DNA of 64,000 nucleotides from Pistricoccus aurantiacus (GTDB lineage Bacteria > Pseudomonadota > Gammaproteobacteria > Pseudomonadales > Halomonadaceae), in the NCBI RefSeq assembly GCF_007954585.1, contig NZ_CP042382.1:620001-684000 (forward strand), written 5' to 3'. The translations under genes were made by a program, and so were the position numbers. Positions 1-10,026 of this stretch are shown piece after piece; the stretch's first letter is position 1; each line of letters opens with the position of its first letter. A model generated the notes under the pieces. It did not search any database and was not told where the DNA came from. It saw only the letters and a program-made list of their open reading frames with translations.

Positions 1-508
1 TTCTGAGCTGCCTGGGCGGCAGCGAACGCTTCTGCCTCTTCCTCGTTTATGCTCATGCCTTTCTGAGCTGCCTGGGCGGCAGCGAACTTGAGAGATGTTC
101 AATTCCCAGATAATTTCTCTTTTCTGAGCTGCCTGGGCGGCAGCGAACTTGGGTATGCCCACTCAGGTCGCAATGACTCTTTTCTGAGCTGCCTGGGCGG
201 CAGCGAACGAAAAGTCTATTCGATTGGATGCTTGCGCATATTTCTGAGCTGCCTGGGCGGCAGCGAACATTAGCCTCTGGGATCATGGTTTCAGGGACGA
301 TTTCTGAGCTGCCTGGGCGGCAGCGAACCTGGGCGCAGATCAAATGCAATACTGGGTGGATTTCTGAGCTGCCTGGGCGGCAGCGAACCTGGGCGCAGAT
401 CAAATGCAACACAGGATGGATTTCTGAGCTGCCTGGGCGGCAGCGAACTGTAGACGAACACCGGCTCGATCTCGCCCGAGTTTCTGAGCTGCCTGGGCGG
501 CAGCGAAC
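1..508 (-). CRISPR. Type I-F CRISPR array, 9 repeats, 8 spacers, cut by left edge
   Basis: Nine copies of a 28-bp repeat lie at 1-27 (first base missing at the window edge), 60-87, 121-148, 181-208, 241-268, 301-328, 361-388, 421-448 and 481-508. Read on the minus strand the repeat is GTTCGCTGCCGCCC followed by AGGCAGCTCAGAAA, with the CTGCC/GGCAG stem typical of I-F repeats cut by Cas6f. All visible repeats are identical. Spacers are 32 bp except 88-120, which is 33 bp. The array is transcribed on the minus strand from the leader at 509-637, so the spacer at 449-480 is the youngest. Spacers 329-360 and 389-420 are near-identical. The array probably continues left of the window. Confidence 0.98.
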
Positions 509-637
509 TAGAGCAAAATAACGCTAATTGATTGATTTTTAAAGAGCCTCCTGTAAAAAGCGCGATATTACCTTTATCAAGGCAACACCGCTAACCCATT
601 GTTTTATAGATCTTCTTTTACTTCTTGCAAAAAAGGG
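509..637 (-). promoter_or_regulatory. CRISPR leader with candidate promoter
   Basis: This AT-rich 129-bp stretch separates the cas6f stop from the first repeat. On the minus strand a TTGCAA hexamer (625-630) and a TATAAA hexamer (603-608) are 16 bp apart, a plausible sigma-70 promoter that would place the start of the pre-crRNA about 90 nt before the first repeat. Position and composition match the leader of I-F loci, where new spacers enter. The promoter is inferred from hexamer match only. Confidence 0.7.
525..537 (-). promoter_or_regulatory. IHF-type binding site in CRISPR leader
   Basis: The minus strand reads AATCAATCAATTA, a full match to the IHF consensus WATCAANNNNTTR, 17 bp from the leader-proximal repeat. 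In type I-E and I-F systems IHF bends the leader so that Cas1-Cas2 can integrate new spacers. The assignment rests on consensus match and position. Confidence 0.6.
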
Positions 638-1207
638 TCAAAACCAGGGTACCGTGGCATGACGGCTCAGGCCGTAGTGGTTGAACGTGCCTTGTACGGG
701 TTCCCTTTGCGGCTTGCCGTGGTCGATAAACAGGCAGAAGCGCTGCTGGCTCGAGCGGCTGTTGAGCTGTACGAACGGCAGTTCGATGCGACGCGACGCC
801 GGTGCGGCATATAGCTGCCGCGCTTCCTCCAGGCTTATGTCATGACGTTTGGCATAACGCTTGGCGCGGCTTTCGCCGCCGGTGTTGAACTGCCTACGCT
901 TCACTACGACATGTCTCACACCTTCGGGTACCGCTTGCACATTGCTCGATACGACGTGATCGCGCATGCCGATTAACCATTCACTCTCCATCAGTTGCTC
1001 GAGTCTTTGGCGAGAGCCGTGGAGACGAAATTGCTCCCCCAGGGTGCGCGCCTGCACTCCGCTTTTATGTTCGGGAAAGCTGACGCCGATATCATCGGCG
1101 TCGAGATCAAAAAGCGCTCGGTGCAGCTTGGCGTAGAGCGCTCCCATCAACATTGGCGCCGGAAATTCCGGATCGAGCCGTAGGCGAATATCGATGTAGT
1201 GATTCAT
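638..1207 (-). CDS. cas6f: Cas6f (Csy4) crRNA endoribonuclease
   Basis: This 189-residue protein has the length and layout of Csy4, which cuts pre-crRNA at the 3' side of the repeat hairpin and stays bound to the crRNA in the Csy complex. His29 lies in ALYAKLHRALF, the same number as the catalytic His29 of Pseudomonas aeruginosa Csy4. Ser150 in QLNSRSS is the likely partner serine. A basic helix with Arg114, Arg117, Lys120 and Arg121 fits the hairpin-binding helix. It starts 3 nt after the csy3 stop and is the last cas gene before the leader. Nothing suggests loss of function in this gene itself. Confidence 0.95.
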   Translation of the reverse strand: MNHYIDIRLRLDPEFPAPMLMGALYAKLHRALFDLDADDIGVSFPEHKSGVQARTLGEQFRLHGSRQRLEQLMESEWLIGMRDHVVSSNVQAVPEGVRHVVVKRRQFNTGGESRAKRYAKRHDISLEEARQLYAAPASRRIELPFVQLNSRSSQQRFCLFIDHGKPQREPVQGTFNHYGLSRHATVPWF

Positions 1208-1210
1208 GGC

Positions 1211-2248
1211 TTACCCCGCTTCGCCGAACACGCCGCCGCGAATCAACGTCGCCATCACAAAATGCTGTTGCTCGGTCGGCGGCACCTGATCCTTGATGAT
1301 CCAACCGTCCAGCAACGAATAGAAATCGGCTTTTTGCTTGGGTTGGCGATACGCCTTGCCTTGGGTAGTGACGGAACCATAGGGCTCGACGGCAATAGGG
1401 CCGAGATCCTCATCGTTTTCCTGCGGATACCAGGTATCGATGGTGCGAATCGCATTGCCGAGCTTCTGAGAGTGAATACCCGCAACACCGCTGACTTGAT
1501 AAAGCGTCTTGCTTTTATTGCCGCTGCTGCGATCCAGAATCAGCTCCTGGGAAGGAAACACCTCCTGCCCCTCTCCAACTCGGGCAAAGGCAACCACTTC
1601 CAGCAGCACATGACGCTCACCGCTCAGGCCGTTATGGATCTGATCCGCCAGCTCCTTCAGGCCCGACTGAGTCGCTTGAGTGGTTTCAAATCCGCGCAAG
1701 GAAAGCGTAAGCGCATCGAAGGACCAACTGCCGGTGGCCTGGCCCTGCTCCACGAGGTTGATACGAATCTCGATCTGCTCGGCGCCCATGCGGTTGCGCC
1801 ACAGAAAGCGCCCATTGGCGAGGTTATAGGCATAGCGTTTGGCTAGTTCAGTGAAACCCTGCTCGCTGACGTAGCCTTTTACCGTTTCGCTCAGCTTGTC
1901 CTGGTAGTCAGCGTTATTGCAGGCGGAAGGCCTGCCGGCGCCACCCAAGACCCGCAGCGTGAAGCGGGTCATTAGCGTGTCCACATCGCTTGGCAGGGTA
2001 GCAACATCCACGGTCTGCAGATTGGGATTTTCAATGGCGACATCCAGTTTGGCGGGATCCTGATCCTTGGCCTTCAAGCGGTTGGAAATAGTGCCGCGCA
2101 CGGATTTTTCGCGAATGGCGATGGGTTGCCATTCTTGCATGTCGTCGCGCTGCTCCCATTGACCGGCGAACATCAGCGCGTCGGAAGGATCAAGCTTGCG
2201 TTCGAAAGCGAGTACGGAAGCGGTCTTGAGAGTATCGTTCTTGGCCAT
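1211..2248 (-). CDS. csy3: Csy3 (Cas7f) backbone subunit of type I-F Cascade
   Basis: The 345-residue product begins [19 protein letters not shown] and contains MFAGQWEQR near residue 26, both typical of Csy3. Six copies of this protein form the helical backbone that holds the crRNA spacer in I-F surveillance complexes. The gene lies between csy2 and cas6f on the minus strand with 16 bp and 2 bp gaps, so it is cotranscribed. The frame is intact, but the gene is downstream of the IS insertion in csy1, so expression may now depend on read-through or on a promoter in the element. Confidence 0.95.
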
Positions 2249-2264: not shown

Positions 2265-3266
2265 TTAAGCGCGCTCTGTGCGCGTTTGATAGTCGTTATT
2301 CAGGCGATAAAGGCCTTGCTCCAGGTCGTTATCCACATACCAGAGCAGGTCTTGCAGCGAATGCAGGCGGTGCGGGCTAATCCACTGCCCGATGGAATAC
2401 AGGCTTTCAACAAAACGGAAAGGCGTACTTTCATCCCGGGCGCCGGCAACCTCGCCAGGCTCGAAAATATCGGTAAGAGCGCCGTAACCTACGGGGATCG
2501 GCACCAGCCAGCCGGGCTTCTTGCGCACCTGCCATTCCACCTCGGCCTTTTCCTTACCGTTTTCATCCGCGATAGCGGTTTGATGGCATTCCCAGTTCAG
2601 GCGTGAAAGATCCAGCCAGCTATCCAGCAGGGTACTATTCGGTTGAGTTTGTTGGCGTTCCTGATGATGCTCCTGCAGGAGATCGTCACGCAGTACCAAG
2701 GCAAAGCCGGGCAGCCAGCGGCGCTTGAGCTTGCTAAAGACCTCTTGTCTGTCGCTTACATCATCGCCAAGCACTTCCAATGTCGGCTGATAGCGGCGCT
2801 GCCCCGGCAATAGCGGCATAACGCTGCCTCCGGCGATACGCATTCCCGCGACGATATCCATGACGGCCTGGGCGGCGTCGGCGCTCTGGATACCTTCGCC
2901 CTTCACCGCCAGCACCAGGGTGATCTCGAGATGCATGCGCCCTTCCTCGACAATGGACGGCGTTGTATAGCTGCCACTTTTTTCGATCTTTTTCCTATCT
3001 TCATGCGAGGCCAATGGATTACGAGTCAAATGGAAGGTGCGCACATAGCCTTGCTGGGTCTGGGTTTCGAAGTCGTGGCAGATCACGCCGATGGCGTTGA
3101 ACTGCAGCTCCAGGGTTTCGGGCAGCTTGCGCTCCAGCGCATGCATGAAGCCGACAAAGGCGCTCATGGCGGGAAAGCCCCAGGTCATCGAGCTGGAAAT
3201 GGCGTTGGCGTTCTGAATACGCAAATGCGGCAGAACCAGCAAGGCTTTGGTATCGGCATCAAACAT
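2265..3266 (-). CDS. csy2: Csy2 (Cas5f) subunit of type I-F Cascade
   Basis: The 333-residue protein opens with [19 protein letters not shown] and continues [17 protein letters not shown], the N-terminal signature of Csy2, which caps the 5' handle of the crRNA together with Csy1. It overlaps the csy1 3' end by 8 bp, which normally couples their translation. Because csy1 is interrupted upstream, coupled translation from the normal csy1 start cannot occur. The csy2 frame itself is intact and of family length. Confidence 0.94.
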
Positions 3267-4272
3267 GGGGCAGTTCCTCCTGCAGAGTATCCAGCTTGCG
3301 TTTCAGGCGCGCCGCCCACTCTCGATGCTCGTTGTCCCCCACGCTCAACCGATTCAGCTGGCGATTGAGCCAGCGGGCAAAGGCCTCGCGAATTCGTTCC
3401 GGCCATTCGCCTTGCTCACGCTGGTTGGCAAAATCCGCCTCTTCTTCACCACGCCAGGGGTCTAGCCATAGCTGCTGCTCCAGCGGCAGGCGGCAAGCCG
3501 AATCCGCGGACCAGCCCGGCGACAGCCCGTGAAATTCGCTGGAGAACAGCACCAGCTCATCGATCAGCGCATCGAAATAGCCATCGACCCGGTTGCGGGT
3601 ATGGCGGTTTTCGGGCGGGTGTGTGAGTAAAAACTGCGCCAAGCCCTGTACCAGCCAGCGCACCTCGCGGCGGCGGCCAAAGCGCTCGAATACGGATTCG
3701 GTATACAAGGGCGCCTTGACGCCTTGGCTTTTCCATTTGGGCGGGAGGGAAGCCAACAGGTAGTTGTTGCCGCCCCGTTCACTGTTGAGCTGGGAAATAT
3801 TCTGCGGCTTGGTGCCACCCAATTTCTGGGCCGCCAGATTCGGGTAATCGCGATAGCCACTTTCGGCTGGCTTGTTGTCTCGTCGTGCCTGGCGAGCCGT
3901 CTTGGCGGCATCGCCGAAACGGTCGGTATTGATGCGCTGGAATATCTGATGGGCAAGGGAAGTGGCATACAGCGGCGCCAGCAAGTGGAAGTCTCCATCG
4001 TCCGTGGGGTCGTCACCCGCAAGCCAATAAAGCTGCTTTGCTTGTGTATGCGAGGCCTCGATGCCCTTGGGCTGGGTAATGCCGGCAAAGGCGTTTGCCC
4101 ACTCGGCTGCCTGGCCAGGGTTATCGCTTAGCGCGTCGCTGAATGCCGCGTCTTCTTCCAGCGCCAGTTCCAGCAGCGATCTGTCTGCATGCTGTAGCCT
4201 GAGAAACTTGTAAATATCTAGCGCCGCCGCATCCCCCACTACATCGCCGCTAAAATCCTCAGGCAGTAGATG

Positions 4273-4278
4273 GCTACC
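4273..4278. repeat. Target-site duplication, left copy (GCTACC)
   Basis: GCTACC directly precedes the TGT terminus of the insertion element and is repeated at 5352-5357 after its ACA terminus. The two copies mark the 6-bp staggered cut made at insertion within csy1. Confidence 0.92.
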
Positions 4279-5260
4279 TGTCGGGGCCCGTGTGATTAAT
4301 TACACGTTTCCAAAATAAATCGGGGCGCTCTTGCTGCCACTGCTTCATGGCCTCGATCGGTGTCCGATGATGCAAGGCCTTCTGGTGGATATGGTGATTG
4401 TACAGCCAGTTGTAGCGTTTGAGCGTCGCCTCCAAGTCGTCACGCGAGTCGAATCGGTGCGTGTTCAGGACATCGCTTATCCTGCCGTTAAACCGTTCCA
4501 CCATACCGTTTGTTTGCGGCCGATACGGGGGAATGAGGCGATGATCAATCCCCTGCCGGGCACAGAACTGATCTACGCGGTGCCTGCCGGTGGGCTGGCG
4601 TTCGCCGCCGGCGGCAAAGCGGTCGGTAAAGGTCTTGCCGTTGTCAGTCAGCAGCGTCTTGATCTCGAACGGTGCACGCTCACGCACATGCTGCAAGAAG
4701 GCCTCAGCATCCTTGGCCGATTGACGATGACGTATCTCCAGATAGACCCAACGCGTCGCCCGATCGATGGCGACGAAAAGATAGCGTTTGCGCTCTTCGT
4801 CAGGCATCTGCGGCAGGTATTTGACGTCGACATGCACATAGCCCGGCTCATAGTCCTTGAACGGCTTGTGTGGCGGTTTCTGGGCGGCTTTTTCCTGCTT
4901 GTACAACGTGGCAAGGCTCGGTAGACCTCGACGTTTCATCAGTCGTTCAAGGGCAGAGCGAGACAGGCTGGGATGCAGAAACTCCCTCGCCACCTTCAGC
5001 AAATCGTCGACGCTCAGGCGCAGGTATTCGCGCAATGCCACGACAATCTCTTCTTGAATCGGCGACAAAGTCGTGAGCAGGTTGTGTCGGGTATGGGAGC
5101 GATCCTGTTGCGTCGTGCGATGACGCCACCGGGCGATGGTGGGACAGGACACACGATAGCGTCGTGCTAATTCACTATCGCTAGTCGACGCTGGGGCTTG
5201 TTGGATTTCCTGGCGGATGCGTGGCGTGGTGGTCGCCGTCTTATGCAGTTTGATATCCAT
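4274..5260 (-). CDS. IS481-family DDE transposase
   Basis: This 328-residue protein has an N-terminal helix-turn-helix region (DSELARRYRVSCPTIARWRHR) and an integrase core. Likely catalytic residues are the Asp in YVHVDVKYLP, the Asp in LLTDNGKTF and the Glu in NGMVERFNGR. I chose the start at 5260 because CAGGAGC lies 6 nt upstream; a longer frame begins at 5296. The element carries no stop codon of its own: the last Arg codon uses one IS base plus two bases of the duplicated target, and the TAG stop (4276-4274) lies entirely in the target duplication GCTACC. Confidence 0.92.
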   Translation of the reverse strand: MDIKLHKTATTTPRIRQEIQQAPASTSDSELARRYRVSCPTIARWRHRTTQQDRSHTRHNLLTTLSPIQEEIVVALREYLRLSVDDLLKVAREFLHPSLSRSALERLMKRRGLPSLATLYKQEKAAQKPPHKPFKDYEPGYVHVDVKYLPQMPDEERKRYLFVAIDRATRWVYLEIRHRQSAKDAEAFLQHVRERAPFEIKTLLTDNGKTFTDRFAAGGERQPTGRHRVDQFCARQGIDHRLIPPYRPQTNGMVERFNGRISDVLNTHRFDSRDDLEATLKRYNWLYNHHIHQKALHHRTPIEAMKQWQQERPDLFWKRVINHTGPDR

Positions 5261-5351
5261 CTCGTTGCTCCTGGATGAACTGGGCAATGAGGTCACGTGC
5301 TGCCAACAAAGGATAACTCCTGTGGCTCAATCTATCATCCGGGGCCTTACA
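4279..5351 (-). mobile_element. IS481-like insertion sequence, 1073 bp, inside csy1
   Basis: The element begins TGTCGGGGCCCG at 4279 and, read from the other end, TGTAAGGCCCCG at 5351. These form an imperfect terminal inverted repeat with 16 of 23 matching positions. It holds one transposase gene on the minus strand, parallel to the cas operon. The flanking 6-bp duplication GCTACC and exact restoration of csy1 on removal define both ends. TGT termini, one DDE transposase and about 1.1 kb agree with the IS481 family. I did not identify a named member. Confidence 0.93.
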
Positions 5352-5357
5352 GCTACC
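5352..5357. repeat. Target-site duplication, right copy (GCTACC)
   Basis: This is the second copy of GCTACC, immediately after the ACA end of the insertion element, and it belongs to the original csy1 sequence. Confidence 0.92.
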
Positions 5358-5650
5358 CACCAAAGGCATATCAGGTAGAGCAGCGGGCTCGACATAGCGA
5401 CTGGAGCCTTTGGCTGCTGGATGAGTCGCTTTCAGCGCATGCGTTACCACCTGCAACCGACTGACCCGGCGAGCGGCATCCCCAACCCAGGCCTCGAACT
5501 CGAACTGCTCGACGAGCGCCTCGCGCTTGGGATCGTCCGAGGCAAGTTTTTCCAGCTTGCCGGCCAGGCGCTCATCGATAAATGTCTGCATCAGTTGGCG
5601 GATTTCGACCGCTCTGTTTTCACTATGACTCGACATACGTTTCCCTTTGT

Positions 5651-8600
5651 TTAATGCCTTGAAAATCCGATCGCCGGATGGAACCGCCATTGCCTGTCGC
5701 CTTCCAGCGCGCGCAACGTCAGCCGACCAAAGCGCTTGGCGCAGGCCTCAAGCGGTAGATCCTGGACTTCCGCCAGTTCGGCCAATTCGGTGAGATAGTC
5801 CTCCTGCCCCCAGGGCCGGATACCTGGGCCTTGTTCCAGTTCGATACGCTGGAGATTCGCCTCGCACTGAACGAATAGATCCGGATCCCGAGGGCGCTCC
5901 TTGTGAACGCGATGAAGGAGCGCTTGCTCGCCGCTCTCATCCGGCAGCAGCACCAGTTCCTCTTCCTGACCCGTACTCTCTCGAAAGGGCCGCCATTGGC
6001 TCATCACGCCGGTCAGCGGCAAGCGGGGCATGGCAAACCAGCTGTAGGCCCCCAGGCTTGGTGCAGCAGTGGAGCCACTTACTTCGGCCAGGTATTTCTG
6101 ACGCTTGCGCTTGGAGAGCTTCGCTAGCTCTTCTTCACTCAAAACCGGCGTTTCTTCGGTGCTTGTAGTTGACGGAGCAACCATCATTTCTTGCAGGCAA
6201 GCATGTTCCAGGTCGACGAGATTGCGGCGGGGCTCAGGCGTTTCGCGGGGCAGAATACGCGGGCGAGCGTCGATCACGTCCCGCTGTTCCGGCGACAGCA
6301 GCGTCATCAGCTCATGGCTTTGCAGCAGATGCGCTTCGGTCTCGAAACCGGGGCGTATAAATACCGGCGAGCGCCCATCGGGATGCTCAAGCGCTTTCAG
6401 ATTGCGGTTGAGCAGCAGGATATTGGGGGTTTCGCAAGGCGCCGGGCGATGGCGGCGCACGCGCCCTGCCAGCTGAATCAGCGAGCGCATCGACGAGGGC
6501 TCGACGATCGCCCAGTCGTAGTCATGATCCCGCCCCACTTCGGTGACCGGCGAACCCAGCACGATAAACAGCTGATCCCGAGCCGATGAGGCGTCGATAC
6601 GGCGCCGAATATCCGGCAGTTCGAACACCGCCTCGGGCTCCTTGCGCTGCAAGGTGCGATCCAGCTGCCGCTCGATGGCCGAGCGCATCAACAGCGGATA
6701 TTGGGAGTGATATACACACAGGTGGATCTGGACATTTTCCGGCGCGCCAAGCCGATAAAGCGAGAGCGCCACTTCCACCAGCGGGTCGATATTGGCCATG
6801 CGGATCAAGCCGAAGGAGACGCGCTTGGCGCTTTTAGGTAGCGTCTCGCCGTGCCGGCGATGCAGGTCCAGGGCGTGTTCGCGCAGCTGCGCGGCCAATT
6901 CCCGGCGTATCTCCTGAGGCTGACGCGATGACGGTATCCATTCTGCCACTTCGGCACGGCGGCGAATCGTATCCTTCGCCAACTGTTGATAGCGCTTTTG
7001 CACGAATTGCCGGTGGGCGCTTTCGAAACTCGTTCGGTCGCTGCAGCCTTCCGCAAGCGTTGCGCTCTCATCGAACCAGGCACAACAAACGCTAGGGTTT
7101 CGTCCGGTTGGTTCCCCGCGATTACGCCGATAAACCGCGCGCCCCGCGCGGTAAGCATCGTAAAGCCCCGCCACCAGGGCGGGCGGCAGCGTGGCGGAAG
7201 AAAGCAGCACTCGAGAGCCGAGCAGCCCCGCCCAGTTCACCAGCCGCGTCAACGCGGGCAGGTCATTAATATCGAAGTCGTCGATCTCATCGAGCACCAG
7301 ATCGGAGGTCATCAGGCGCAACATGGGGGCGATCTGTCCGCCGCCTCGGGCGCTTTCCGTGGCGGGCATCAGATGATCCACGGTGCAGGTGAGAATCGGT
7401 GCGGCGATCAGGCTCTTGACCGTAGCATCGTGAGCGACGCGCTTGAGAATCGGATGCTCGGAGAAATTTCCCTCGAACAGCACATGGGAATCGTCCGAAA
7501 GCAAGTCTTGGGAAGACGCGGAGCCGGTCTTTTCCGCCTCCGCCTCGTAGTGCTCGAACAGGGCGCGGCTGGCACTGCCGCCGACGCGAATCGCCAACTC
7601 GTCTTCGCCCAGATGCATCTGCCGGCGGTAATCGCGGCCGGTCTGTAGGGTCAGGGTGCGCAGCCCCAGGGCAATGGAGAAACGCGCGCCTTTCTGCGGG
7701 TCCGCCAGGGCATACAGAATACGACCATTGGCCAGGGTCTTGCCGCAGCCGGTGGAGGCCATGTTGATGCCGAAAAAACCGTGATCGGATGATTTGTCAC
7801 GCAGCCCAACCGCAAGATCGGAGGCGCGATCCTGCCAGCGAAAGCGACTGTTTTCGCTGCGTTTACGAAAGCCCTTGTGACGTGCCAGACGCGGCAGATG
7901 ATCAGCCAAGGTAGCCAGATGGCGGGCGTTTTCCTTGCTGAAGCGCGCCACGCCTAGAAGGTGAGCGTCGAGCTTTTGATTGGGCTCGCCGGTCTTGCGC
8001 TGGGTGTTGGCGTAGAGGTTGTAATCGGCGTCGCCGCGCACCCAGTCGTCCTGCTTCGGGTCGTTCAGGCTGGAATAATAGTGATCCGCCAGCATCAGAC
8101 ATAGTCGTGCCAGGTGCATGACATAGGCGTTATCCAGCGGATGATCCGCATGACCGGGCAACCGTTTGAGCAGCCTTTCCGCGACCAGAGCCGCCTGCTG
8201 TTGCCACTTGGCTGTAACCACCGGCAGTTCATCGGCCAGCTGCCAGTAAGCCGTCAGCCGCTCAGGGTCGGTCTCGGTACAAGCCTCGTTCCACTGGTGG
8301 GTCAGCATGCCGGGTATATCGACCAAGGCGCTGGCGGAAAGCCCTTTCAACTTGCCGCCCAGCCGTTCGGGATTATCGCCGGGTTTCAACGGCAGACGGT
8401 GATGGCTAAGCAACAGCCAACCCACCGCCTGGGCCAGCGGCGGCAACCGGGTGAAAGGCGCCATGCTCTCGGCGTTTAATCCATCCCGCTGCAAACGGCG
8501 CGTCCAGCTGTCGGCGAAATCCGCCGGTGGCTCTATCAGACGCTTGAGCCATCCTTCGTCGTCATCCTCGCCGACAAACGCCTGGAAAAGCCGCAGCGAC

Positions 8601-9052
8601 AGCCATTCGTGACGATAGAGATTCCTGCCTTCCAGCTTTCCTTTCAGCCGCAACTGAAAGGCCTCGGATGCCTTGCCCAAATCGTGCAGCAGTGCGGCCA
8701 AGGTGGCCAGCAGCTTGATATCCTCGCCGGTGTGCCAATCGTTCTCGTCGGCGCGACGCAAAATGTCGCGTCGTGTGGTATTGGTGGGCACGGCGCCTTG
8801 CATATTGAAGCGGCTGGCATCGCCGACGATCCAGACAAGCTCGCTATGATCGCGGCCGCGAATCCAGTGACAGGCCACCGCGGTATTCTTGCGCGCGCTC
8901 TTTCTCAGCAACTTTCTAAGCGTATCCAGTCCGGCCTGAGTGATGGGCGTCTGCCAGGTGCGCTCGCCGCGCCGCTCGGCGAACTGATCGAGAATGCGCC
9001 GGGTCTCCTTGAGAGCGTTCTTGTTGCACTGGGAGACGATCAGCACGTTCAT
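5651..9052 (-). CDS. cas3: Cas2-Cas3 fusion nuclease-helicase, type I-F
   Basis: The 1133-residue fusion starts with a Cas2 domain (MNVLIVSQCNKNALKETR, residues 1-95) followed by Cas3. The HD nuclease motif is LLHDLGKA (His123, Asp124). Helicase motifs are Walker A ASTGCGKT at 432-439, the DEAD-box variant DEIDD at 588-592, SSATLP at 618-623, and QLAGRVRRHR near the C-terminus. Such fusions are specific to type I-F and serve both spacer acquisition with Cas1 and target shredding after Csy recruitment. The start at 9052 was chosen because its ATGA overlaps the cas1 stop; the frame is open further upstream but lies inside cas1. The gene is intact. Confidence 0.96.
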   Translation of the reverse strand: MNVLIVSQCNKNALKETRRILDQFAERRGERTWQTPITQAGLDTLRKLLRKSARKNTAVACHWIRGRDHSELVWIVGDASRFNMQGAVPTNTTRRDILRRADENDWHTGEDIKLLATLAALLHDLGKASEAFQLRLKGKLEGRNLYRHEWLSLRLFQAFVGEDDDEGWLKRLIEPPADFADSWTRRLQRDGLNAESMAPFTRLPPLAQAVGWLLLSHHRLPLKPGDNPERLGGKLKGLSASALVDIPGMLTHQWNEACTETDPERLTAYWQLADELPVVTAKWQQQAALVAERLLKRLPGHADHPLDNAYVMHLARLCLMLADHYYSSLNDPKQDDWVRGDADYNLYANTQRKTGEPNQKLDAHLLGVARFSKENARHLATLADHLPRLARHKGFRKRSENSRFRWQDRASDLAVGLRDKSSDHGFFGINMASTGCGKTLANGRILYALADPQKGARFSIALGLRTLTLQTGRDYRRQMHLGEDELAIRVGGSASRALFEHYEAEAEKTGSASSQDLLSDDSHVLFEGNFSEHPILKRVAHDATVKSLIAAPILTCTVDHLMPATESARGGGQIAPMLRLMTSDLVLDEIDDFDINDLPALTRLVNWAGLLGSRVLLSSATLPPALVAGLYDAYRAGRAVYRRNRGEPTGRNPSVCCAWFDESATLAEGCSDRTSFESAHRQFVQKRYQQLAKDTIRRRAEVAEWIPSSRQPQEIRRELAAQLREHALDLHRRHGETLPKSAKRVSFGLIRMANIDPLVEVALSLYRLGAPENVQIHLCVYHSQYPLLMRSAIERQLDRTLQRKEPEAVFELPDIRRRIDASSARDQLFIVLGSPVTEVGRDHDYDWAIVEPSSMRSLIQLAGRVRRHRPAPCETPNILLLNRNLKALEHPDGRSPVFIRPGFETEAHLLQSHELMTLLSPEQRDVIDARPRILPRETPEPRRNLVDLEHACLQEMMVAPSTTSTEETPVLSEEELAKLSKRKRQKYLAEVSGSTAAPSLGAYSWFAMPRLPLTGVMSQWRPFRESTGQEEELVLLPDESGEQALLHRVHKERPRDPDLFVQCEANLQRIELEQGPGIRPWGQEDYLTELAELAEVQDLPLEACAKRFGRLTLRALEGDRQWRFHPAIGFSRH

Positions 9053-10026
9053 GATTCGACGCTCCCCAGATCGATGGCGATCTCCTTCAGGGTGTCGATC
9101 ATGAAATCCAGGGATTCGCTGCGGGTGAGGCTTTCGATGCAGGCTTGGCGAAACTCCTGCTCCTCGTCGCCGCACATGGCGGAAATGAACGCCTGAGGAA
9201 GAATGACCGCATCTTTGACCAGATCCGCCACGTCGAACACCAGCCCGCCCCGCCGGGTCTTGCCGTGCAGTACCGCCAATCCATGAGGAATGCCCATGAC
9301 CCAGGTAGCCGTGGCGCCCAAGCCATAGGCGAGATAGTTACCGTGATCGAGGAAGCGGTTGGCCGGGTCCGTGCCGCTGCCACGCTTGGCGCGAGTGAAG
9401 TCGCCATAATTCACCGCCTGCACCGCCAGCTTGAACAGCGTCTTGGTCAGGCGTGCTTCCAGGGTCAGCAGGTCGATGGTGCTGGGCGCCTTGGCGATGG
9501 CCTGGCGATGCTGCTCCAGGGCCGAAGTCAGACGATCCGGCGAGATGACAAAACCTGAGTCGCGTAGCGGACGACTGTCGAGCCACTGTTTCTCGATACG
9601 TGCAAGCCGCGCTAGTTGAAAGCGCCGCGCGGCTTCGAGACGTTTCTCGTCGTCGAACCAGAAACGCACCCAGTACTGCAGGTATTCCGTGGGCCGATAC
9701 TCGCTTTGCGGGCTGAGCCAGGCGACGTCCACGTCGACTTCGTTGGCGGAAAACAGCGGCGTGCCACCCCCACCACAGAAGCCGACCAGCACCCCTGCCT
9801 TGGCCAGCTCGCGCATGGCGGCCTGGGTAATGGAGGTGCCGGTACCCAGCAGGATCGAAGTGGTATTGGCAATCGGAATGTTCCAGTACTTCGACTGGCG
9901 CCCTTCATCGGTGACATATTCTACCCGACCACCGTTGACCAGCACGCGGCAATGCTGCAGGTAATAAAGGTTGGCCCGCTTGGAATGCAGGATCGTCTTG
10001 AGCGACGAAGGAGAAAGCTCGTCCAT
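9049..10026 (-). CDS. cas1: Cas1 integrase, type I-F
   Basis: The 325-residue protein carries the metal-binding residues Glu190 (LTLEARL), His254 (GLAVLHGK), Asp265 and Asp268 (FDVADLVKD), which coincide in number with the P. aeruginosa I-F Cas1. Cas1 with the Cas2 part of Cas2-3 integrates prespacers at the leader-proximal repeat. It is the first gene of the minus-strand cas operon and overlaps cas2-3 by 4 bp. About 220 bp without a gene lie upstream and should hold the operon promoter, which I could not define with confidence. Confidence 0.96.
   Translation of the reverse strand: MDELSPSSLKTILHSKRANLYYLQHCRVLVNGGRVEYVTDEGRQSKYWNIPIANTTSILLGTGTSITQAAMRELAKAGVLVGFCGGGGTPLFSANEVDVDVAWLSPQSEYRPTEYLQYWVRFWFDDEKRLEAARRFQLARLARIEKQWLDSRPLRDSGFVISPDRLTSALEQHRQAIAKAPSTIDLLTLEARLTKTLFKLAVQAVNYGDFTRAKRGSGTDPANRFLDHGNYLAYGLGATATWVMGIPHGLAVLHGKTRRGGLVFDVADLVKDAVILPQAFISAMCGDEEQEFRQACIESLTRSESLDFMIDTLKEIAIDLGSVES

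What the first reader, a model, noticed from the sequence alone, without database searches (positions are those of the whole stretch)
329..420. Twin adjacent spacers that differ only at synonymous wobble positions
Spacers 329-360 and 389-420 share 29 of 32 bases. The three differences (spacer positions 22, 25, 28) are exactly 3 nt apart. In the open plus frame both encode WAQIKCNTGW; in the open minus frame both encode HPVLHLICAQ. All three changes are thus silent third-position changes of one conserved gene, not sequencing noise. On the crRNA they fall at positions 5, 8 and 11, two within the seed, where mismatches matter most. The simplest reading is that the cell acquired the same protospacer site from two diverged relatives of one phage, the leader-proximal copy later, as an update against a variant that the older spacer would miss. 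Reuse of the same site also suggests strongly site-preferred or primed acquisition.
Basis: partly seen in the sequence, partly recalled or inferred. Interest (0 to 1): 0.82.

Follow-up and report, generated by a model that had tools for sequence, protein, structure and literature searches.

The report
Twin CRISPR spacers from diverged phages
Two neighbouring entries in a bacterium's CRISPR memory appear to be copies of the same spot of one viral gene taken from two slightly different relatives of a virus; this is a neat record of repeated infection that recurs in related bacteria, but no new mechanism is needed, and the CRISPR system of this strain is now probably disabled by a jumping gene.

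Summary
Spacers 329-360 and 389-420 are spacers 3 and 2 from the leader of an 87-spacer type I-F array. They share 29 of 32 bases and differ at crRNA positions 5, 8 and 11, silently in the only two frames that stay identical.

Two separate captures of one protospacer from diverged homologous invaders is the best explanation (about 0.85). Duplication followed by mutation is disfavoured: true duplicates in this array are identical and 87 of 88 repeats are invariant. A second pair here (spacers 15 and 49) overlaps at a 5-nt offset, differs silently and shows the CC PAM, so it cannot be an array copy. In 79 family arrays (4,202 spacers) 23 overlapping non-identical pairs occur, against 0 in shuffles; 6 of the 12 with two or more differences lie in one codon phase (P = 0.004).

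Silent spacing alone is weak evidence (9% by chance). No target was found in phages, plasmids, IMG/VR, species genomes or relatives, so gene, frame and the twins' own PAM are unidentified. Strong site preference or priming is not required; the "update" is plausible but untested. In passing: cas8f is split by a recent insertion element, so interference is probably off now.

The parts
389..420 (-). Spacer 2 from the leader (crRNA TCCATCCTGTGTTGCATTTGATCTGCGCCCAG), younger twin
329..360 (-). Spacer 3 from the leader (crRNA TCCACCCAGTATTGCATTTGATCTGCGCCCAG), older twin
1..508 (-). Leader-proximal end of the I-F array (repeats and spacers 1-8); the whole array is G000:C1:615260-620508, 88 repeats and 87 spacers, so most of it lies left of the window
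509..637 (-). Presumed leader between the first repeat and cas6f
   Evidence: position between array and cas6f; boundary inferred
638..1207 (-). cas6f (csy4)
   Evidence: PF09618 4e-62
1211..2248 (-). cas7f (csy3)
   Evidence: PF09615 2e-153
2265..3266 (-). cas5f (csy2)
   Evidence: PF09614 1e-109
3259..4278 (-). cas8f (csy1), C-terminal part, cut off by the insertion element
   Evidence: PF09611 profile positions 63-378; frame open up to the element
4279..5351 (-). Insertion element with an rve-type DDE transposase (4274-5296, -); direct repeats GCTACC at 4273-4278 and 5352-5357; identical second copy at G000:C1:802742-803818
5352..5690 (-). cas8f (csy1), N-terminal part, cut off by the insertion element (start codon not fixed)
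   Evidence: PF09611 profile positions 1-53
5651..9175 (-). cas2-cas3 fusion (likely start internal, at MNVLIVS)
   Evidence: PF21384 3e-45; PADLOC Cas23f score 1289
9049..10026 (-). cas1f
   Evidence: PADLOC Cas1f 5e-158

Best explanation
The twins are two independent captures of the same 32-bp protospacer, at the same PAM, from two diverged copies of one protein-coding gene, most likely in two related phages that infected this lineage at close times. Steps: (1) the older spacer (329-360) was taken by Cas1:Cas2-3 from invader A; (2) a homologous invader B with three silent changes in the PAM-proximal part of the site was met later, and the same site was taken again next to the leader (389-420); (3) while the system worked, B's changes at crRNA positions 5 and 8 lie in the seed, so the older guide should have been weakened against B while the new one matched exactly. 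Shown here: identity, positions, silent frames, array order, and the general habit of re-sampling homologous sites. Inferred: that the source was a phage gene, that two separate invaders were involved, and that the second capture helped.
For: Spacer order, orientation and differences. Copies made inside this array do not diverge: spacers 27-30 = 50-53 and 31-32 = 34-35 with 0 of 192 bases changed, and 87 of 88 repeats are identical. A second pair in the same array, spacers 15 and 49, overlaps by 27 nt at a 5-nt offset, differs at two positions 3 nt apart, is silent in frames HDSQGNTAA / AAVLPWLS, and shows CC inside spacer 15 exactly where the PAM of spacer 49 should be; an array copy cannot shift register. 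Survey of 79 I-F arrays of the family, 4,202 spacers: 23 overlapping non-identical pairs against 0, 0, 0 with shuffled spacers and 0, 1, 0 with spacers dealt at random among arrays. Of 12 pairs with at least 2 differences, 6 have all differences in one codon phase (expected 1.97, P = 0.004; without the twin P = 0.017). The mismatch spectrum of in-register pairs (66 identical, 2 with one mismatch, 0 with two, 3 with three, 1 with six) does not fit copy-then-mutate, which predicts about 0.0003 pairs with three or more. CC PAM visible in 8 of 11 checkable offset positions and beside the phage matches of spacers 80 and 83.
Against: No protospacer for either twin was found anywhere searched, so source, gene, frame and the twins' own PAM are unverified. 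Silence by itself has a chance of about 9%. Two of the diverged in-register pairs in the survey (L103 16/84, L106 95/99) are not silent in any frame, so such pairs are not always silent coding changes.
Confidence: 0.85

Rival explanations
1. One spacer is a tandem copy of the other, made by repeat-mediated recombination, which then picked up three point mutations in the array.
For: The twins are adjacent, and exact block duplications occur in this array and in the family (66 identical pairs, 17 adjacent).
Against: All other duplicates in this array are identical (0/192 bases) and 87 of 88 repeats are invariant. The family's mismatch spectrum predicts about 0.0003 pairs with three or more changes by this route. 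Three mutations at exact 3-nt spacing, all silent, have no reason to arise in a non-coding spacer (0.5% for the spacing).
Confidence: 0.06
2. Both protospacers sat in one invader, as paralogous or repeated copies of one gene or domain, and were captured in one infection.
For: Adjacency in the array; silent divergence is equally expected between paralogues. Inference only.
Against: No invader genome is available to test it. Twenty-one shared bases and three silent changes fit recent homologues at least as well. Other family pairs lie far apart in their arrays (gaps 29-68), as expected for separate infections.
Confidence: 0.07
3. Two sister cells each captured the site from a different phage variant and a repeat-mediated recombination between their arrays brought the two spacers side by side; array order then says nothing about which came first.
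For: The array has recombined (blocks 27-30/50-53 and 31-32/34-35).
Against: The flanking spacers of the twins show no duplication. No sister-strain array is held: neither spacer occurs in 275 family genomes.
Confidence: 0.1
4. The second capture was primed: the older guide bound the variant imperfectly and steered Cas1:Cas2-3 back to the same region (a version of the best explanation, not exclusive with it).
For: In the P. atrosepticum I-F system primed spacers map close to the priming protospacer (PMC5059440). In-register diverged pairs of the family tend to lie close together in their arrays (Fisher P = 0.024 for four pairs, post hoc).
Against: Priming favours the neighbourhood, not the exact same site. 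Random re-sampling of PAM sites could give a few exact coincidences in a survey of this size, depending on assumed genome size and phage sharing. Offset pairs show no closeness in the array (P = 0.30).
Confidence: 0.35

Closest known systems
Type I-F primed and interference-driven adaptation (Pectobacterium atrosepticum; PMC5059440)
   Same: Same subtype; GG/CC PAM; 32-nt spacers with a 33-nt minority; slips of a nucleotide at the same PAM (the +/-1 offset pairs of the survey look like this)
   Different: There new spacers spread around the priming site; here the exact same site was taken twice. Priming was not tested here.
Spacer clusters differing by a few bases, as grouped by array-comparison software (CRISPR Comparison Toolkit, PMC10457644, which offers grouping of spacers that differ by two or fewer bases)
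   Same: Near-identical spacers are a known occurrence
   Different: There near-identity is handled between homologous arrays; here both lie in one array, differ by three silent changes and are adjacent.
Segmental spacer duplication by recombination at repeats
   Same: Occurs in this array (spacers 27-30/50-53, 31-32/34-35)
   Different: Copies are exact and come in blocks; the twins are diverged and have unrelated neighbours.

Membership tests
Type I-F CRISPR-Cas | 28-nt I-F repeat with about 32-nt spacers | tested here: met
   88 repeats; 86 spacers of 32 nt and one of 33 nt
Type I-F CRISPR-Cas | cas1, cas2-3 fusion, csy1-csy4 | tested here: met
   All six genes recognised, but cas8f/csy1 is split by an insertion element
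Type I-F CRISPR-Cas | CC PAM next to protospacers (crRNA-sense strand, 5' side) | tested here: met
   Phage matches of spacers 80 and 83; 8 of 11 offset-pair positions. Not testable for the twins themselves (no target found)
Type I-F CRISPR-Cas | Intact effector complex able to interfere | tested here: not met
   cas8f interrupted at 4279-5351 and no second copy in the genome; loss of function itself is inferred
Re-sampled protospacer from diverged invaders | Both spacers match homologous sites in two invader genomes | tested here: inconclusive
   No target in IMG/VR, phages, plasmids, species genomes or relatives
Re-sampled protospacer from diverged invaders | Differences fit silent coding changes | tested here: met
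   Silent in frames +2 and -3; recurrent phase bias in the family
Array-internal duplication | Copies identical, usually in blocks with matching neighbours | tested here: not met
   Three differences, neighbours unrelated
Primed acquisition | Second spacer acquired because the first guide partly matched the invader | not testable with these tools
   Needs an invader sequence and an acquisition assay

The most novel reading that the evidence does not exclude
Type I-F arrays of this family return to the exact same PAM site when a diverged version of a phage arrives more often than PAM density predicts, so that an array holds matched 'versions' of one guide; this would be a directed guide-updating mode of primed adaptation.
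Probability: 0.08. Interest if true: 0.7.

Novelty: new member of a known kind. Interest (0 to 1): 0.33.

Why it matters
The pair is a small fossil record of an arms race: a host met two versions of one virus gene and stored both, with the changes in the part of the guide where mismatches hurt most. The survey shows that such pairs recur, at about 0.3 overlapping non-identical pairs per array. They can therefore be mined without any phage genome to read codon phase, PAM and divergence of unsequenced viruses. If exact-site reuse proved more frequent than PAM density predicts, it would point to a directed updating step in primed adaptation, which can be tested in a lab I-F strain.

Tried and rejected
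Target search for the twins. IMG/VR was scanned with a wobble-free pattern, plus-frame codons, minus-frame codons and four relaxed cores; all hits were short open frames without matching context. Species genomes were scanned twice. Also searched: 275 family and 391 order genomes with up to 3 mismatches, phages and plasmids, and tblastn of the 11-residue peptide, which is near the detection limit. A 17-nt exact hit in Rosemountvirus phages was checked and rejected: it covers only the PAM-distal half of the + strand reading, and the annotated gene there is in another frame. Target search for the spacer 15/49 pair likewise failed; the family search gave only short partial matches. The concatenated-spacer search of relatives was weakly sensitive because only two candidates per genome are scored. 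Chance similarity of the twins was rejected. Sequencing error was not pursued: it would not produce silent 3-nt spacing in a complete assembly, but no reads are available. Paper searches for an earlier description of in-array silent twins found none, in a library that lacks most subscription journals.

Full report
WHAT IS THERE. The window begins inside a large type I-F CRISPR array. The whole array runs from G000:C1:615260 to 620508, with 88 repeats and 87 spacers; all spacers are 32 nt except spacer 7, which is 33 nt. The crRNA strand is minus (repeat GTTCGCTGCCGCCCAGGCAGCTCAGAAA). The only degenerate repeat is at the far left end and the cas genes are on the right, so the leader is on the right. 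The spacers in the finding are therefore spacer 3 (329-360) and spacer 2 (389-420); spacer 1 is 449-480.

THE OBSERVATION. The two spacers share 29 of 32 bases. The differences are at + strand spacer positions 22, 25 and 28, crRNA positions 11, 8 and 5. Frames +2 (WAQIKCNTGW) and -3 (HPVLHLICAQ) are identical between the two, the other four differ. A match this good between two spacers is not chance (about 2e-11 expected). The silent pattern alone is only suggestive: about 9% of random triple substitutions are silent in at least one open frame, 2.5% in two or more, and exact 3-3 spacing occurs in 0.5% of position triples.

COPY OR RE-CAPTURE. The array contains true internal copies, spacers 27-30 = 50-53 and 31-32 = 34-35, with no base changed in 192, and 87 of 88 repeats are identical. 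A copied spacer that gained three changes while everything else stayed fixed is unlikely. A second pair, spacers 15 and 49, is more telling: the two overlap by 27 nt but are shifted by 5 nt, differ at two positions 3 nt apart, both silent in the open frames AAVLPWLS and HDSQGNTAA, and the CC PAM of spacer 49 is visible inside spacer 15. A copy within the array cannot shift register, so this array has sampled diverged versions of one locus at least once apart from the twins. The CC PAM and orientation are also seen beside the best phage matches of spacers 80 and 83, in baseplate genes of Peduoviridae and of a Halomonas phage; it was not seen at the weaker matches of spacers 56 and 44.

HOW COMMON IS IT. 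97 of 275 genomes of the family have a Cas6f match. From 70 loci, 78 arrays with 4,115 spacers were extracted. With the window's array that makes 79 arrays and 4,202 spacers. Within arrays there are 66 identical pairs (41 in duplicated blocks) and 23 overlapping non-identical pairs; controls give 0, 0, 0 (shuffled spacers) and 0, 1, 0 (spacers dealt among arrays). Of the 12 pairs with at least two differences, 6 have all differences in one codon phase, against 1.97 expected (P = 0.004; P = 0.017 without the twins). In-register pairs fall into 66 with no mismatch, 2 with one, 0 with two, 3 with three and 1 with six; copy-then-mutate would give about 0.0003 pairs with three or more. In offset pairs the PAM position can be read off the partner in 11 cases and is CC in 8. 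So repeated capture of homologous sites from diverged invaders is a recurrent feature of these arrays, and the twins are the one case in which an in-register diverged pair is adjacent.

SITE PREFERENCE, PRIMING AND UPDATE. If spacers are drawn at random from PAM sites, the survey's 156,431 within-array pairs would hold from about 0.2 to 8 exact coincidences, depending on assumed phage genome size, PAM density and the fraction of pairs from homologous phages; 3 to 4 diverged in-register pairs were seen. Two hints point the other way and remain weak: in-register diverged pairs lie nearer to each other in the array than chance (Fisher P = 0.024, four pairs, chosen after the fact), while offset pairs do not (P = 0.30). 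In P. atrosepticum primed spacers map near the priming site (PMC5059440), which fits but does not single out the same site. The seed statement is correct for two of the three changes: the Csy seed is the first eight protospacer nucleotides (PMC4344526). That the newer spacer was useful is inference.

THE TARGET IS UNKNOWN. Neither twin matches anything in IMG/VR, the species-genome collection, phage records, plasmids, 275 family genomes or 391 order genomes at up to three mismatches, or its own genome outside the array. The collections hide the window's own record and near ones, and most phages of this host group are unsequenced, so the absence is weak evidence. The frame, the gene, the PAM at the twins and the number of invaders therefore stay open.

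STATE OF THE SYSTEM. cas8f (csy1) is split. Its N-terminal part (profile 1-53) and C-terminal part (63-378) are separated by a 1,073-bp element at 4279-5351 with an rve-type DDE transposase and GCTACC direct repeats on both sides; an identical copy lies at G000:C1:802742-803818, so the insertion is recent. No second cas8f exists in the genome. The Csy complex contains one Csy1 and initiates target recognition at the PAM (PMC4344526), so interference and priming are expected to be off now, while Cas1 and Cas2-3 look intact. Any benefit of the newer twin would belong to the time before this insertion; whether the twins were captured before it cannot be told from one genome.

VERDICT. Observation confirmed; interpretation partly supported. 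The twins are a new example of a known kind of event (repeated sampling of homologous invaders), here unusually clean and adjacent.

Noticed in passing
window 4273-5357: cas8f (csy1) is interrupted by a 1,073-bp insertion element (rve-type DDE transposase, GCTACC target duplication, 100% identical second copy at G000:C1:802742-803818); no other cas8f in the genome, so the I-F effector is probably inactive although all other cas genes look whole.
   Followed up: partly
G000:C1:617300-618740 (left of the window; spacers 27-30/50-53 and 31-32/34-35): Exact block duplications inside the array, with no base changed, showing repeat-mediated rearrangement.
   Followed up: yes
G000:C1:617568-617599 and 619608-619639 (spacers 49 and 15): A second re-sampled site, shifted by 5 nt, with silent differences and a visible CC PAM; the minus-frame peptide GHDSQGNTAAG looks tail-fibre-like by eye (not confirmed).
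   Followed up: partly
L137 (spacers 2/68), L120 (5/38), L123 (56/85), L139 (1/35): Other family arrays with overlapping spacers whose differences all fall in one codon phase; three of the four are offset by one nucleotide, as if captured at the same PAM with a slip.
   Followed up: partly
survey arrays, 25 identical within-array pairs outside duplicated blocks: Single identical spacers repeated far apart without matching neighbours; could be exact re-capture or small recombinations.
   Followed up: no
G251:C1:294190-294221 (L017): A family genome carries a 29/32 match to spacer 44, but with CT rather than CC at the PAM position; not checked whether it is a prophage.
   Followed up: no
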